Positions 273-26,564 of a stretch of DNA of 33,520 nucleotides are shown here, one piece after another. The notes under the pieces are model-generated. The model saw only the letters and a list, made by a program, of their open reading frames with translations. It was not told where the DNA came from and made no database searches. The translations under genes and the position numbers were made by a program. The DNA lies in IMG/VR virus record IMGVR_UViG_3300017991_000270, positions 1 to 33,520 of that record; one strand, written 5' to 3'. This stretch comes from a virus. Numbering within the stretch: position 1 is the stretch's first letter; each line of letters begins with the position of its first letter.

Positions 273-340
273 TCCCGACTCCTTGAAGAAAGTTGAGGGG
301 CACGGTGCCCCCAAGGGGCCCCACATGGGGCCATGAGGGA

Positions 341-448
341 CCATGAGGGGTTGTATCAGGGGCCATATGGTCCCCTTGTACCCCCCTTAGGGGGCCATGA
401 GGGGTTGTATCAGGGGCCATATGGTCCCCTTGTACCCCCCTTAGGGGG
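341..448. repeat. two tandem 54-bp repeats, hairpin-rich
   Basis: Copies at 341-394 and 395-448 look identical, with a period of exactly 54 bases. Each copy holds CCATATGG flanked by GGGG and CCCC, and a CCCCC-TAA-GGGGG type hairpin in the minus-strand sense. Positions 302-340 add further GC hairpins, for example GGCCCC-ATGT-GGGGCC on the minus strand. The block sits in the 221-base gap between the gene ending at 494 and the gene starting at 272. It could serve as an RNA processing, termination or promoter element for the downstream gene; which one cannot be told from sequence alone. Confidence 0.9.
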
Positions 449-493
449 CCATACTCCCCCTACCAGCACGCATTATCTGTCACTCTTCCTATC

Positions 494-1855: not shown

Positions 1856-2645
1856 GATTTACTCTCCGGCATGCGGACGGAATCGTCGCATCCACTGCGG
1901 ACGCGACAAAAGCCACCGACGCCCGTGAAGGCACCGATGGCGTTGTCACGCCGGAGTCTGTCATGCCGGTGGTCGCATCGCCCCCGCTCGCCCCATAAGG
2001 GGGTCATGGCAGGGGAGTCCCCGCAGGGACACCGGCAAGGTCCGATTCGAGCCGATGCGGTTGCAACGGATGCCCGGACAGAGCATGCCCACTATTATCA
2101 TCCCTCCCGGTGGGCCCGGGATCCTCCGCTCGTGCGGATGGCTGTACCTTCCCGATGGTTATTAACCCAACGGGTCCTTACACTCGAGGCGTGGTCGATA
2201 CAGCCCGCCCGGGATCGGCCCGAGACCTTCCGCGTTGGGTGCAGCACACTACCACGAGCATAGCGAGCACACCGTCGGCATCCGGCCCCGGGGATCGCGG
2301 AACCTTCCCGGACTCGCGGCGTTCCATTAACCGCGAGCGAGAGTAGGTCCGATCCCGGTATGTCGTCCGCCGGTTCCCGTCGGCCCGGACCCGGGCCCGC
2401 GGGGGACGCTCCCCCGCCGAAGGACAAGTACAGTCTGCAGTGTGCCGCGTCGAATCCAAACCGTCGGACCCGACGATTTGCCGTCCGATAAACCACAACC
2501 CCGATGACCCGCAGACTCCGCCCAAACCCCCACGAGGTCCGATAACCCCCGCCGGGCCTGGGTAGCGGAACGCGCGCGCGATACCATACACTCCGCCCCA
2601 GTCAAGGACCGATAACGAGAATCTGTGCTCCGATAATCGGAAGAG

Positions 2646-2759
2646 GTCCGATAACCTCCCCGTGGTGCGGCATGCCAATCGGCTGGCACACCACACCACA
2701 GCGTCCGATAACTCCCCCGTGGTGCGGCATGCCAATCGGCTGGCACACCCCACCACAGC
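2646..2759. repeat. two tandem 57-bp repeats
   Basis: Copies at 2646-2702 and 2703-2759 differ at only a few positions. Each begins with GTCCGATAAC and contains GTGGTGCGGCATGCCA followed by a GC-rich imperfect palindrome and CACCAC. A third copy begins at 2760 but turns at once into the 15-bp array, as if the array grew out of the edge of this repeat. Confidence 0.9.
2669..2689. repeat. GC-rich imperfect palindrome, copy 1 of 4
   Basis: The core TGCCAATCGGCTGGCA lies here and again at 2726-2746. Its reverse complement, TGCCAGCCGATTGGCA, lies at 3686-3706, with a one-base-changed form at 3632-3652. The GCCA/TGGC arms are self-complementary, as in a dimeric protein-binding site. The left pair is 57 bases apart and the right pair 54 bases apart. 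The two pairs point in opposite directions around the segment 2750-3630. Confidence 0.85.
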
Positions 2760-2925
2760 GTCCCATAACCCACGGTCCGAGAACCCACGGTCCGGTAACT
2801 CACGGTCCGAGAACCCATGGTCCGAGAACCCATGGTCCGGTAACCGAGAGTCCGAGAACCCATGGTCCGGTAATAGGGGGGTCCGAGAACCCATGGTCCG
2901 AAAAAGGCAGGTCCGATAGCCCCAC
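2759..2925. repeat. 15-bp tandem array, about 11 units
   Basis: Units of the form GGTCCGAGAACCCAT start at 2774, 2789, 2804, 2819, 2834, 2849, 2864, 2880, 2895 and 2910, preceded by a variant at 2759. One extra base lies in the unit at 2864. Two main types alternate irregularly, GAGAAC and GGTAAC. There are no spacers of unique sequence, so it is not a CRISPR array. T7 carries arrays of short 7-bp repeats next to its terminal repeat; this array may be a functional counterpart, which is inference. Confidence 0.9.
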
Positions 2926-3157
2926 CCTCCCCCCACGCCGTTATGGGACCGTCCGATAACCCCACGGTCCGGTAACGCACGGTCCCATAACCCATGGTCC
3001 GGTAATGGGGGAGGTCCGATAACGCCCGCTGCGTCCGATAACCCCCGGAGGTCCGATAACTCCCGAGGGGTGGGCGGAATCCCCCGTGGACTCCCCCGCG
3101 CTCGTCGGGCTCCGACACCTACCCTCCCCGTGGTCCGGGAGACTTTCGGATTGTCGG

Positions 3158-3188
3158 GGGAGCCCCTACCGCCTGCAGGGGCTCCCCT
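3158..3188. terminator. perfect 11-bp hairpin downstream of the Cys-rich gene
   Basis: GGGGAGCCCCT pairs perfectly with AGGGGCTCCCC around a nine-base loop. It begins 15 bases after the stop of the gene at 3203-3481. No U tract follows on either strand, so it is not a classical intrinsic terminator. It could be an RNA-processing stem, a barrier to transcription, or a DNA structure at the genome ends. Confidence 0.5.
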
Positions 3189-3202
3189 GAACCGCTACAC
3201 TA

Positions 3203-3481
3203 TCACCGCCCGATGCAATCCCGATAGGTGATAGTCTCGGCATCCCGCTTGCGGGCTCGCTTGCCGACCCACCTCAGACTCTTGCTGAAGGCTTCCCAGA
3301 TTGCGATACGGTTCGCAACCTTGTAGTCCGGATGAACCGCACGAACCGCATAAACCGTTTGCCCACAACACGATTCACAAGTGGCGTCGCCCGAACGGAG
3401 CGTATCCTCGATCCGCCGCATGCAAGCCACGCACCCCGGGCCCGCGGAACAACGAGTGACGAAAGGGTAACCAGAAACCAT
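3203..3481 (-). CDS. small Cys-rich protein, possible zinc ribbon
   Basis: This 92-residue protein starts at an ATG at 3481 with GGAG about eight bases upstream. Its N-terminal half holds cysteines at about 11, 17 and 20 (CX5CX2C) and at about 35, 38 and 39 (CESCC), a spacing that suggests metal binding. The C-terminal half is basic (KSLRWVGKRARKRD), which suits nucleic-acid binding. The metal and DNA-binding ideas are inferred from composition. It stands alone between two repeat clusters, with a hairpin after it. A weak promoter-like pair lies upstream at 3513-3541. By position it may be the first gene at the entering genome end, or lie within or beside a terminal repeat. Confidence 0.65.
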   Translation of the reverse strand: MVSGYPFVTRCSAGPGCVACMRRIEDTLRSGDATCESCCGQTVYAVRAVHPDYKVANRIAIWEAFSKSLRWVGKRARKRDAETITYRDCIGR

Positions 3482-3988
3482 AACTAGACTCCAGACTAGA
3501 GGGTACCTGTACAGTCTACGCTACGCTCCGGGCCCCTGCAAACCATCGGGCCGGATTCCGTCGGAAGGTAGGGAAACCTTGCGGCCTGTACCGCTTCCGA
3601 TAATCCACAGGGGTTATCGGCCACCCGGTACGGCATGCCAGACGATTGGCACGGCGTACCCTGAGGTCCCATAAGCCCCACAAACGGCATGCCAGCCGAT
3701 TGGCACGGCCTACCGTCGCGCCATTATGGGACGGTCCGGGAAGGTCCCGCCGGCGACAGGGGGGCACGGGGGGATTATGGGACGGTCCGATAACTAGACC
3801 CCACACGCCCCTACAGTACCCCCAATACCCCTCATCGGGGGAGACGCCCAGGGCCCGGCACCCCCACGTCCCCGCTAGGCGCCCTAGGAGCCCGCTGGAG
3901 CCACGCCAGCAGTTCAGACGGGGGACGAGTCCTCCGGATCTGCTGGGGCTCACAGAGGCTCCTAGGGGCCTTAGCGGGCAAGGGCCCC
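3482..3988. other. non-coding region with second repeat cluster
   Basis: No gene is supported here. The inverted repeat CCGATAA (3597-3603) / TTATCGG (3614-3620) has a ten-base loop. GTCCCATAAG lies at 3666-3675. The direct repeat ATTATGGGACGGTCCG occurs at 3723-3738 and 3774-3789, and the second copy forms the head-to-head pair TTATGGGAC-G-GTCCGATAA at 3775-3793. Two GC-rich 16-bp palindromes lie within 3632-3652 and 3686-3706. Just after the last late gene (3989), GGGGCCCTT and AAGGCCCC can pair in minus-strand RNA with one bulged base, a possible late terminator without a U tract. Confidence 0.75.
3513..3541 (-). promoter_or_regulatory. weak sigma70-like promoter candidate
   Basis: On the minus strand TTGCAG (3536-3541) and TAGACT (3513-3518) are 17 bases apart, upstream of the gene starting at 3481. 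Matches are only 3/6 and 4/6, so chance is a real possibility. Confidence 0.25.
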
Positions 3989-4564
3989 TCATGGCCCCTC
4001 AGGGGGCCTTTGGGCCTGACGGCGGGCGTCGTCGATGGCCTGCTGGCGGCGGGCGTCGTCGAACTCCTGCTCTTGGGGCAGCAGCTCTCCCCCCTGCTCC
4101 AGCTGGCGGGCGTTCAGCACCCGTCGAGGGACCTCCACCAGGACATCGTCGCGGATGGCCTTCCGCATGGCCAGGTTGGCCGCGTTGGGGTCGGGGGCCG
4201 GGCCGCCCTCCAGCTGGTCCAGGATGCTCAGGAGGAGCTGGGTCATCTGCTGGGAGCCGATGGAGGGGTACTTGCTGTAGACGTTCTCGGCGGCCCAGCG
4301 GGCCTGAGCGAACCGCTCATCGGGGCTGAGTCGCCCCTGCCGAGCATGGAGGTTGGAGAACATGAGGTGCCCGGCCGCGCGGATCTCGCCCTGGGAATCC
4401 AGCCGATCCATCTCGGCGTTCACGCGCTGATCCTGGATGGCCCTGAGAGCGTCCTGCTCCACGCGGGTTCGGGTGGATTGGGCCCACTGCATGGCGCGCT
4501 CGGCCGCGGCATCGACCTCTGCGGGGTCATAGGGGGACGGTGGAAGATTGGGCAGACGGCTCAT
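3989..4564 (-). CDS. hypothetical helical protein, 191 aa (last late gene)
   Basis: The protein of 191 residues begins MSRLPNLPPSPYDPAEVDAA. The ATG at 4564 overlaps the preceding stop as ATGA; a longer open frame reaches 4786 but covers the neighbour. After a Pro-rich start it is largely helical and charged. It ends in a Gln/Arg/Asp-rich tail (residues about 160-191) that looks like a coiled coil or a disordered arm. It has no membrane segment, cysteine pattern or known motif. It closes the late gene run before the repeat-bearing region. A minor virion protein or an assembly factor is possible, but neither is shown by the sequence. Confidence 0.75.
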   Translation of the reverse strand: MSRLPNLPPSPYDPAEVDAAAERAMQWAQSTRTRVEQDALRAIQDQRVNAEMDRLDSQGEIRAAGHLMFSNLHARQGRLSPDERFAQARWAAENVYSKYPSIGSQQMTQLLLSILDQLEGGPAPDPNAANLAMRKAIRDDVLVEVPRRVLNARQLEQGGELLPQEQEFDDARRQQAIDDARRQAQRPPEGP

Positions 4565-7247: not shown

Positions 7248-7463
7248 TCAACGCCTGCCGCGTTCTTCCCTGCGCCGCTGGGCCTCGGTACGCACGCCGC
7301 GCTTGACCTGGGTGTTGGGGCGGTTGGCGTCCACGCGCTCGCCCCTCATGGACGCCATGACGTTGCGAGTGATCCCTGTCAGGGTCTCGCGGTTCATGGA
7401 GGGGTACTTGGCCTGCAATCGTCCGATTACCTTGGCGACGGTTTCCGATGTAGTTCGTGGCAT
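7248..7463 (-). CDS. hypothetical basic protein, 71 aa
   Basis: This 71-residue protein starts at an ATG (7463) overlapping the large terminase stop as TAATG. The N-terminal half looks helical (ETVAKVIGRLQAKYPSMNRETL) and the C-terminal third is very Arg-rich and probably disordered (TEAQRRREERGRR). Such a tail suggests nucleic-acid contact. Its place just after the terminase would suit a packaging or genome-end accessory, but this is inference and I recognise no family. Confidence 0.7.
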   Translation of the reverse strand: MPRTTSETVAKVIGRLQAKYPSMNRETLTGITRNVMASMRGERVDANRPNTQVKRGVRTEAQRRREERGRR

Positions 7464-9253
7464 TACATTCTCCAGCGCCGGGCTCGGCGCATGTGCCGCG
7501 CGGGGTCGCGCTGGCGGGCTTGTTTGATCGGTACCAGATCCTGAGCGGCCTTAAAGCCGTGCTTGGAGGACCACTGGTCCCACTCGTGAGCCTGCAAGAC
7601 CGCCTCGTTGTGGCGGCGCTGCTGCTCGCGGACCTCGGGGTCGAGGTTGATGTGTGCCGTGAACTGGGCCACGGCGCCGTGCAGGGCATCGATCACGTCG
7701 TCGTGACCGAGCGCGCCTGCGTCAGGGGTGATGTGGGTGAGCTGGTAGGTCAGCTCCCCGCACTTGGCGGCTCGCTCTGAGAACACCAGGCGGTGGTTCT
7801 CCATGATGGGCCGCAGCGTGTCGATGATGCGGGTCTCCTTGCGGCCCGTGACGTAGTACGGCTGGACCTCGCAGGCACCGACCCACTTGGCCAGATGCGG
7901 CTGGAGGAGCTTCCCGTACGGCGATAGCTCCTTGCCGCCGCCATAGTTGGACTCGACCACCACGCGGCGCACGTCGTACGTCGAGGCGGTCTTGGCCAGC
8001 TTGGTCATCACGGCGTCGGACGTGCCGTCAGCACCCGCCGCCAGTCCGCCCGCGTCGAGGACGTAGATGACGCCGTTGAGGAAGGCAGCCACGCACCACC
8101 CCACGGAGTCGGCGCCGCCGCCCGAGGGGTCGATGAACATCAGCTTGTCCTGGAACGGCAGCCACGTCTCTTCGACCATGGCAGGCCGGTGCAGGTAGTC
8201 GCCGGTGAATCCGGCGGCTTCGATGTGGAGGATCCGCTCCGCGGTGCCCCACACGATGTTCGAGGGGCCCATGTCGGCGGGCGTGTCGAACACGATCAGG
8301 TTCTTGAGCTTGAGGGGGTAGCGCTCCTCGTCCGACAGCGTCGTGTCGAGAAGCATCTGGAGATTGTAGTAGGCGAGTCCGATCGCCTTCTTCTCCAGCA
8401 GGCGCTCCATGGGGAAGCGCTCGGGGTAGCTGGGCCTGCCAGAGCCTTCTTCCTTTGCCCGGCGCACAAGCCACTCGTCCACGTTGCGGCAACGCACCTC
8501 GTCGTCCGGGGGCGGTAGCTCGGCGGGCCAGCGACAGATGCGGTAGCCCGCATCGTCCAGCTTGTTGTAGATCGACTCCTCGGTCTGCGGGGTCCCCATG
8601 TACATGATGTAGCCATGCTCCATGATCAGCGACTCGCACTCGCGCAGCTTGCCGAACAGGCGGCCACGCTTGAGGACGGTGAGGCTGTTCTCGGGGATCT
8701 CCACGTCGTCAGGGATGATGATGTCGGGGTGGGAGCCGGTCCATCCGCCGAACACCGGGTACGCCGCAAAGGACGGGTCCTTGCCTGGGCCCGCCCCTCG
8801 GACATCGAATGCGTCCTCGGTGTTCTTGGCCTTCTTCATGGTCGGGGCCTTCTTGCCCCGGTACATCAGCACGTCCCGCTCCGGGTCGGGGCGGAGGTGC
8901 TGGAGCAGGGGAGAGCTGTCGAGCAGCTGCTTGACCAGCCCCGCCAGCTCGTTGGCCTTCTTGGCCACGCTGGACAGGACCAGCACCCGGACCGTGGGGT
9001 TGCAGTACCACAGCCACGCGATGAAGCAGCACGCGATCACGGACTTGCCGCAACCGCGCATGGCCTGCACCTGTTTCCGGGTGATTCCGTCAGGCGACTC
9101 CGACAAGGTCTGCATCCAGTCCGCGATGCGGTACTGGATCGGATCCGGCTCTCCGTACCCCAGCACTTCGGTGAAGTGGTAGTACAGGAAGTTTCGGAAG
9201 TCGTGCATCGGGTCCTTGGTCGGGTCCAGATGCTCCAGCTTGATCCGCAGCAT
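7463..9253 (-). CDS. terL: terminase large subunit (DNA maturase B, T7 gp19-like)
   Basis: The ATPase-nuclease packages concatemeric DNA into the prohead through the portal and cuts it to length. The N-terminal ATPase domain holds Walker A, MRGCGKS, at about 65-71, and Walker B, DIIIPDDVE, at about 177-185, both close to T7 gp19. A coupling motif, GTPQTE, follows. The C-terminal RNase H-like nuclease domain shows MFIDPSGGG, VVESNYGGGKE and HDDVIDALHG, each carrying a metal-binding acidic residue. Its 596 residues are near the T7 length. The start overlaps the small terminase stop as TGATG. T7-type terminases produce direct terminal repeats, so this phage probably has them. Confidence 0.97.
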   Translation of the reverse strand: MLRIKLEHLDPTKDPMHDFRNFLYYHFTEVLGYGEPDPIQYRIADWMQTLSESPDGITRKQVQAMRGCGKSVIACCFIAWLWYCNPTVRVLVLSSVAKKANELAGLVKQLLDSSPLLQHLRPDPERDVLMYRGKKAPTMKKAKNTEDAFDVRGAGPGKDPSFAAYPVFGGWTGSHPDIIIPDDVEIPENSLTVLKRGRLFGKLRECESLIMEHGYIMYMGTPQTEESIYNKLDDAGYRICRWPAELPPPDDEVRCRNVDEWLVRRAKEEGSGRPSYPERFPMERLLEKKAIGLAYYNLQMLLDTTLSDEERYPLKLKNLIVFDTPADMGPSNIVWGTAERILHIEAAGFTGDYLHRPAMVEETWLPFQDKLMFIDPSGGGADSVGWCVAAFLNGVIYVLDAGGLAAGADGTSDAVMTKLAKTASTYDVRRVVVESNYGGGKELSPYGKLLQPHLAKWVGACEVQPYYVTGRKETRIIDTLRPIMENHRLVFSERAAKCGELTYQLTHITPDAGALGHDDVIDALHGAVAQFTAHINLDPEVREQQRRHNEAVLQAHEWDQWSSKHGFKAAQDLVPIKQARQRDPARHMRRARRWRM

Positions 9254-9492
9254 CAGCCGGTCCCCGATGCCGGGAAGGGCAGCTTGGCCAGGCTGCCGCT
9301 GATTTCGTCAAGAGCGCCCCCCGGGACCGGGAACGCGGCGATGCTGTTGTCCTTGCAGAAGCGCAGCGCTGCGTTGATTGCCGCGGCGTCGAACTCGCCG
9401 GTCTCGACCATCTCGGCCAGCTTGGCCTTCAGCACGATGGCCGTCAGCTTGTGGATGTCGGCTTCGGTCTTGGACTGTTCGTCGGGAGTCAT
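9253..9492 (-). CDS. terS: terminase small subunit (DNA maturase A, T7 gp18-like)
   Basis: The protein has 79 residues, close to T7 gp18 (89). Its N-terminal helix (MTPDEQSKTEADIHKLTAIV) and the segment NAALRFCKDNSIAAFP match the helix-turn text common to small terminases of T7-like phages. The subunit recognises the phage DNA end region and stimulates the large subunit. It lies directly upstream of the large subunit with a TGATG overlap, and its own start overlaps the preceding small membrane gene as ATGA. Its DNA target may be the repeats at 2483-3794, which is inference. Confidence 0.85.
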   Translation of the reverse strand: MTPDEQSKTEADIHKLTAIVLKAKLAEMVETGEFDAAAINAALRFCKDNSIAAFPVPGGALDEISGSLAKLPFPASGTG

Positions 9493-26438: not shown

Positions 26439-26489
26439 TCCGGGCTGGGGCGCTGTGCGGCGATGCTCCGGTTCGTGGGGGCTGTATAA

Positions 26490-26559
26490 TAGCGCGGGCG
26501 GGAGTCGAACCCGCATCCCCAGACTAGCATCCGGGCGCTCTACATTGAGCTACCGCGCA
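26490..26559 (-). tRNA. degenerate tRNA-like element (anticodon uncertain)
   Basis: On the minus strand an acceptor stem (GCGCGG/CCGCGC), a D arm (GCTC-AATGTA-GAGC) and a perfect T arm (GCGGG-TTCGACT-CCCGC) are clear. The anticodon arm is poor: taking a seven-base loop gives GCT (Ser codons AGC/AGU) with one C-U mismatch; taking a fully paired stem leaves a six-base loop. The variable loop is only about four bases, which is wrong for tRNA-Ser, and the D loop lacks the GG pair. The CCA end is not encoded. It may be a decayed or unusual tRNA, or a tRNA-like processing site between the scaffold and capsid genes. Confidence 0.65.
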
Positions 26560-26564
26560 AACCA

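What the first reader, a model, noticed from the sequence alone, without database searches (positions are those of the whole stretch)
2483..3794. About 30 copies of a GTCC(G/C)ATAAC motif, partly as a 15-bp tandem array
Twenty-four same-direction copies lie between 2483 and 3060, and further copies, mostly in inverted arrangements, lie at 3597-3794. Some are head-to-head pairs (TTATGGGAC-N-GTCCGATAA at 2941-2959 and 3775-3793), as expected for a dimeric protein site. Ten to eleven copies are at a strict 15-base period, about 1.4 helical turns. Variants differ at the same two positions (GATAAC, GAGAAC, GGTAAC, CATAAC). T7 has arrays of short 7-bp repeats beside its terminal repeat; I know of no report of this motif.
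Basis: partly seen in the sequence, partly recalled or inferred. Interest (0 to 1): 0.8.

Follow-up and report, generated by a model that had tools for sequence, protein, structure and literature searches.

The report
Repeat array at T7-like genome end
A T7-like virus of bacteria carries about 30 copies of one 9-letter DNA word next to the predicted left end of its genome, where T7 carries its own short repeats; the same word recurs in many other uncultured phages, some unrelated, and what reads it is unknown.

Summary
24 same-direction copies lie at 2483-3060, plus one inverted, and 6 more at 3595-3794. A strict form occurs 27 times here against 0.2 expected, and twice in the other 32 kb. On the coding (minus) strand the word is TTAT[C/G]GGAC.

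The array lies in the right-end/left-end junction of a T7-like genome. A C-run element, CCCCC[A/G]T[A/G]-like, begins 14-42 nt from the left end in all 13 cultured T7-like phages checked whose records start at a terminus. The window has it at 3773-3759, so its left genome end is predicted near 3798. The first TTATCGGAC would then be nt 6-14 of the genome and the main array 0.74-1.3 kb inside. T7 has the same layout with another word, CCTAAAG.

All five relatives with both capsid and terL (window included) have the array. The word recurs at the junction of further T7-like lineages (at least 6 label changes on the terL tree) and in unrelated large contigs, but not in 14 cultured relatives or most T7-like contigs. 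It is a new variant of a known kind of terminal repeat. Its role in end processing and its reader are inferred. The Cys-rich ORF at 3203-3481 is not conserved.

The parts
2483..3060 (-). Main array: 24 copies reading TTAT[C/G]GGAC (and variants) on the coding minus strand plus one inverted copy; 10-11 of them at a 15-bp period (2760-2920)
3595..3794 (.). Second cluster: six copies, three in each direction, including the head-to-head pair 3775-3793
3759..3774 (-). C-run end element, coding strand TCCCCCCGTGCCCCCC, directly after the head-to-head pair; marks the left genome end in cultured T7-like phages
3786..3814 (-). Predicted left physical genome end (start of the terminal repeat); best guess 3798, where the coding strand begins TCTAGTTATCGGAC
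   Evidence: inferred from the distance of the C-run to the left end in 13 cultured phages; not mapped
2941..2959 (.). Head-to-head pair TTATGGGAC-C-GTCCGATAA inside the main array
3061..3594 (.). Word-free gap holding the Cys-rich ORF 3203-3481(-); most of it missing from relative G001, so not part of the conserved system
7463..9253 (-). terL, terminase large subunit (T7-like); genome context, candidate reader
9253..9492 (-). terS, terminase small subunit (DNA_Packaging_2); genome context, candidate reader

Best explanation
The array is the left-genome-end (concatemer-junction) repeat system of a T7-like phage, laid out like T7's CCTAAAG repeats but with the word TTAT[C/G]GGAC. Shown: the array's place in the junction, the shared C-run end element, and conservation in relatives. 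Inferred: the copies are binding sites for a protein, most likely the terminase complex or a helper bound to it, that marks the left end so that concatemers are cut and the terminal repeat completed at the C-run element. Many weak sites would raise local occupancy, which would explain why copy number, spacing and direction vary while the 9-mer stays fixed.
For: The array lies between terL and the early region in G035, G030, G008, G038 and the window. All capsid relatives that include terL carry it. The C-run element beside it starts 14-42 nt from the left end in 13 of 13 cultured records that start at a terminus, and is absent at base 1 of four records that do not. A blind scan for the element finds it 258-2639 bp downstream of terL in 36 loci, always on the same strand. 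T7 has its own short word before, after and beyond its C-run. The word stays fixed while the array turns over between window and G001.
Against: No end was mapped for this phage and no binding was tested. Most T7-like ends show the C-run element without this array, so the array is not needed for packaging in general. The same word occurs in phages unrelated to T7, and in one T7-like group the array lies about 17 kb from terL.
Confidence: 0.5

Rival explanations
1. The word is read by a host DNA-binding protein that several unrelated phages of related hosts exploit or titrate at or near their genome ends, for example for end protection, replication or takeover.
For: Patchy recurrence on the terL tree, at least six changes, and presence in siphovirus-like and large phages.
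Against: Hosts are unknown; TTATCGGAC is not a hyper-abundant (Chi-like) word in any of 398 Pseudomonadota genomes; no matching arrays were recognised in cellular genomes apart from one stretch in a Heimdallarchaeota-labelled MAG.
Confidence: 0.2
2. The array is a replication-initiation cluster: iteron-like or DnaA-box-like sites near the left end, bound by a host or phage initiator.
For: Clustered 9-mers of the form TTATN-GGAC with loose spacing and both orientations; in some non-T7 carriers a DnaB-type helicase or primase-like gene lies near the array.
Against: The right half differs from the DnaA box TTATNCACA (from general knowledge); GC skew shows no consistent switch at the array; no initiator-like gene recognised in the window.
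Confidence: 0.15
3. The array is a set of operator sites controlling the early region that starts just beyond it.
For: It lies upstream of the early genes; in large contigs dense copies begin at a divergent gene junction and run into small early-type genes, sometimes overlapping start codons.
Against: Orientation relative to transcription differs between lineages; the C-run neighbour is an end mark, not a promoter part.
Confidence: 0.1
4. The array is neutral tandem-repeat expansion in a gene-poor stretch.
For: The 15-bp period and 57-bp duplications (2646-2771) show recent repeat growth; the array differs between window and G001.
Against: The same 9-mer, and not its surroundings, recurs in independent lineages: 89 stretches against 11 for the reversed word. 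It forms mostly one cluster per genome, at the same place in the T7-like ones examined.
Confidence: 0.03

Closest known systems
CCTAAAG short repeats at the T7 genome ends
   Same: Short direct repeats with a 13-15 bp period, in and beyond the left end, immediately beside a C-run element about 26 nt from the end
   Different: Different, longer word (TTAT[C/G]GGAC); more copies; head-to-head pairs; the same word recurs in other lineages and unrelated phages
DnaA boxes (TTATNCACA, from general knowledge)
   Same: Clustered 9-mers starting TTATN with loose spacing
   Different: Right half GGAC instead of CACA; no initiator gene recognised in the window
Mycobacteriophage L5 stoperators (from general knowledge)
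   Same: Many copies of one short asymmetric site in a phage genome
   Different: Here clustered at one end rather than spread over the genome; no repressor recognised
Chi sites (from general knowledge)
   Same: Short asymmetric word that would make sense near linear DNA ends
   Different: Not an over-abundant word in the 398 Pseudomonadota genomes sampled

Membership tests
T7-type terminal short-repeat system | Array of short repeats at the right-end/left-end junction of a T7-like genome | tested here: met
   gene order and array position
T7-type terminal short-repeat system | C-run end element with repeat copies beside it | tested here: met
   window 3773-3759, copies at nt 6 and 16 before it
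T7-type terminal short-repeat system | Word CCTAAAG | tested here: not met
   The window word is TTAT[C/G]GGAC: a variant by layout, not the same repeat
T7-type terminal short-repeat system | Direct terminal repeat flanked by the arrays | not testable with these tools
   No reads; the assembly runs through the junction, so the terminal repeat length is unknown
DnaA-box cluster | Consensus TTATNCACA | tested here: not met
   Copies read TTATSGGAC; the right half differs
Chi-like site | Strongly over-represented in host genomes | tested here: inconclusive
   Not seen in 398 Pseudomonadota genomes, but the host is unknown
Transposon end (IS21/Tn7 type) | Transposase gene beside the repeats | tested here: inconclusive
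   The ORFs scanned gave no transposase match, but not every window ORF was scanned

The most novel reading that the evidence does not exclude
TTAT[C/G]GGAC is a recognition word read by one widespread factor, of the host or spread between phages, at or near genome ends of unrelated phages: several T7-like lineages, siphovirus-like phages, and 70-180 kb phages with dozens of copies. It would be a shared, previously undescribed genome-end code.
Probability: 0.3. Interest if true: 0.8.

Novelty: new variant of a known kind. Interest (0 to 1): 0.58.

Why it matters
[quoted passage not shown] Two testable handles come out of this work. One is a C-run element that predicts left genome ends of T7-like phages from sequence alone, including metagenomic contigs assembled through the junction. 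The other is a natural set of phages in which the same word was gained or lost several times at that junction. If a common reader exists, it would link genome-end biology across unrelated phages.

Tried and rejected
(1) Host-abundant (Chi-like) word: no strong excess in 398 Pseudomonadota genomes. (2) Bacterial arrays: the genome-collection hits with more than three copies that were inspected are largely in-frame or tandem repeats, not such arrays, apart from one MAG stretch. (3) Universal T7-like feature: 80 loci found by terL profile show no excess downstream of terL (5 vs 15 for the control). (4) Cys-rich ORF as partner: segment missing from G001. (5) Shared carrier protein: all-against-all comparison found no family common to the carriers beyond T7-like core genes (most loci are partial). 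(6) Structured RNA: only a below-threshold Rfam match at 316-398, taken as chance. (7) Direct hits in cultured phages: blastn of the junction and of a synthetic array gave none. (8) Literature: text searches for the word or its complement listed only papers that look unrelated (only the top of each list was shown). (9) The 127-bp end overlap of G035 and of the BB8 record may be an assembly k-mer overlap and is not used as proof of a terminal repeat. (10) Arrays lie within 1.5 kb of contig ends more often than expected (13 of 65 vs 3.8), but repeats also break assemblies, so this is only weak support. (11) The C-run pair alone is not rare in the collection: 103 stretches is about what I estimate for chance; the informative part is that in about half of the loci read it sits beside T7-like terL in a fixed direction.

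Full report
1. The observation. Scanning GTCCSATAAC with up to two mismatches gives 24 plus-strand copies at 2483-3060, one inverted copy at 2940 and six at 3595-3794. A stricter form, GTCC[GC][AG][TGA]AA, occurs 27 times in 2400-3800, twice elsewhere, and 4 times when reversed; a Markov model of the same segment gives 0.22 on average, maximum 3. The 15-bp period and the head-to-head pairs with a 1-nt spacer are as described. The recognisable genes are on the minus strand, so the word is best read as TTAT[C/G]GGAC.

2. Where it lies. The window is a T7-like phage with terS and terL (9492-7463) followed by late genes ending at 3989, then about 2.1 kb without clear genes, then early small genes from 1855 down. 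This is the order expected when an assembly runs through the joined right and left ends. The near-identical relative G001 (terL 98%) has the same order: outer flanks mostly 75-99% alike in 75-bp steps, the array itself (2625-3740) rearranged, and the stretch with the Cys-rich ORF missing.

3. Conservation. A scan of 2.9 million viral contigs for two exact words within 30 bp gave 89 stretches, against 11 for the reversed word. In 42 carriers searched whole, the word forms mostly a single cluster per genome. A terL profile finds full-length T7-like terL in 21 of 80 carrier records. In most of the twelve best-scoring ones terL lies within about 2-2.5 kb of the array; nine others score lower and belong to a group in which terL lies far from the array (G018 and G042 examined in detail: roughly 17-19 kb; the array follows a very large ORF at the end of the late module). 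In G035, G030, G008 and G038 the array is between terL and the early region before the phage RNA polymerase. Relatives found by capsid, not by the word, agree: the four besides the window that include terL all have the array; the others in that set lack terL, and those of them scanned for the word lack it too. Fourteen cultured T7-like phages have at most one copy, and 80 loci found by terL alone show no excess. On a 76-row terL tree the label needs at least six changes (the 'none' rows include fragments, so some may be misjudged).

4. The end element. Beside the array the density of runs of five or more G or C is ten times that of the rest in T7-like carriers. In the window this is GGGGGGCACGGGGGGA (3759-3774), i.e. 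CCCCCCGTGCCCCCC on the coding strand. A scan for GGGGGGCAYGGGGGGW, blind to the word, returned 103 stretches; of the 80 loci read here, 41 encode T7-like terL and in 36 the element lies 258-2639 bp downstream of terL, always with the C-runs on the coding strand. In cultured phages the element marks the end: a C-run of 4-8 followed by [A/G]T[A/G] or close variants begins at nt 26 (T7, T3, phiKMV), 27 (gh-1, K1F, P-SSP7, Pasto), 29 (SP6), 33 (Lo5R7ANS), 42 (S2B), 20 (BB8), 17 (ProddE) and 14 (LUZ100); four T7-like records that do not start that way (HTVC168P, CRP-804, CRP-114, RHEph01) lack it there. K1F and SP6 have runs of only four C. P-SSP7 ends were sequenced directly (PMC3350473), T3 ends were confirmed by read counts (PMC3896407), and LUZ100 is reported with 244-bp repeats (PMC10134795; the record gives exactly 244). 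About 0.3% of random 50-nt stretches of such phages carry an element of this form. Caveats: for ProddE, Pasto and Lo5R7ANS no exact end repeat is in the record, BB8's 127 bp may be an assembly overlap, and I chose the 13 by hand.

5. Consequence. In the window the C-run starts at 3773, so the left end is predicted at 3786-3814, best guess 3798, where the coding strand begins TCTAGTTATCGGACCGTCCCATAATCCCCCC with the C-run at nt 26. The first copies lie at nt 6, 57 and 125 (with inverted partners at 16 and 67) and the main array at nt 740-1308. In T7, CCTAAAG lies at 17, 41 and 60 around the C-run, and again at 175-332 with a 13-bp period. The layout is the same; the word is not.

6. How it most likely works. 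Shown: position, conservation and the shared end element. Inferred: the copies are sites for a DNA-binding protein that marks the left end for concatemer cutting and completion of the terminal repeat; the terminase complex is the first candidate. Variable number, spacing and direction fit many weak sites raising local occupancy. The weak point is the recurrence of one word in unrelated phages, including 70-180 kb contigs where dozens of TTATNGGAC copies cover several kb and even small ORFs. That points to a shared reader, perhaps of the host; a Chi-like host word is not supported. Initiator-box, host-factor and regulatory readings stay open.

7. Known or new. Short repeats at T7 ends are known; this is a variant with a new word and wider recurrence. 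I found no report of the word in the library held. Whether the C-run element has been described as a general end mark of T7-like phages I cannot say from that library.

Noticed in passing
L031/L034, L089, L036, L081, L100, L023, L068, L092 (70-180 kb contigs and two of about 40 kb): Dense TTATNGGAC copies over 2-6 kb starting near a divergent gene junction, also inside small ORFs; some copies read TTATGGGAC with the ATG after a ribosome-binding-like GGAGG.
   Followed up: partly
L165 (CP070695.1, MAG labelled Candidatus Heimdallarchaeota), genome position 92091-93604: 14 exact TTATCGGAC copies in one 1.5-kb stretch resembling the large-contig regions; possibly viral sequence in the assembly.
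   Followed up: partly
window 2673-2688, 2730-2745, 3636-3651, 3690-3705: A second repeated element, TGCCA-N6-TGGCA, in four copies within the junction; the exact form is absent from G001.
   Followed up: partly
L055, L080, L070, L021, L058, L086: Podovirus-like contigs with ORFs of 2000-3500 aa ending about 0.4-0.5 kb before their arrays; weak similarity to the internal virion protein.
   Followed up: partly
window 26489-26560 (-): ARAGORN reports a tRNA-like gene with an unusual 4-base anticodon (gcta) between capsid and scaffold genes.
   Followed up: no
window 337-452: A 54-bp unit repeated 2.1 times (98% alike) beside the first early gene; similar sequence is found in G001.
   Followed up: no
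L408, L361, L383, L402, L451, L453, L449: Other T7-like ends carry their own short repeated words (e.g. CGGTGCCC x12, CCACCAGGC x7, AACCGTGGC x5), suggesting lineage-specific terminal repeat words in general.
   Followed up: partly
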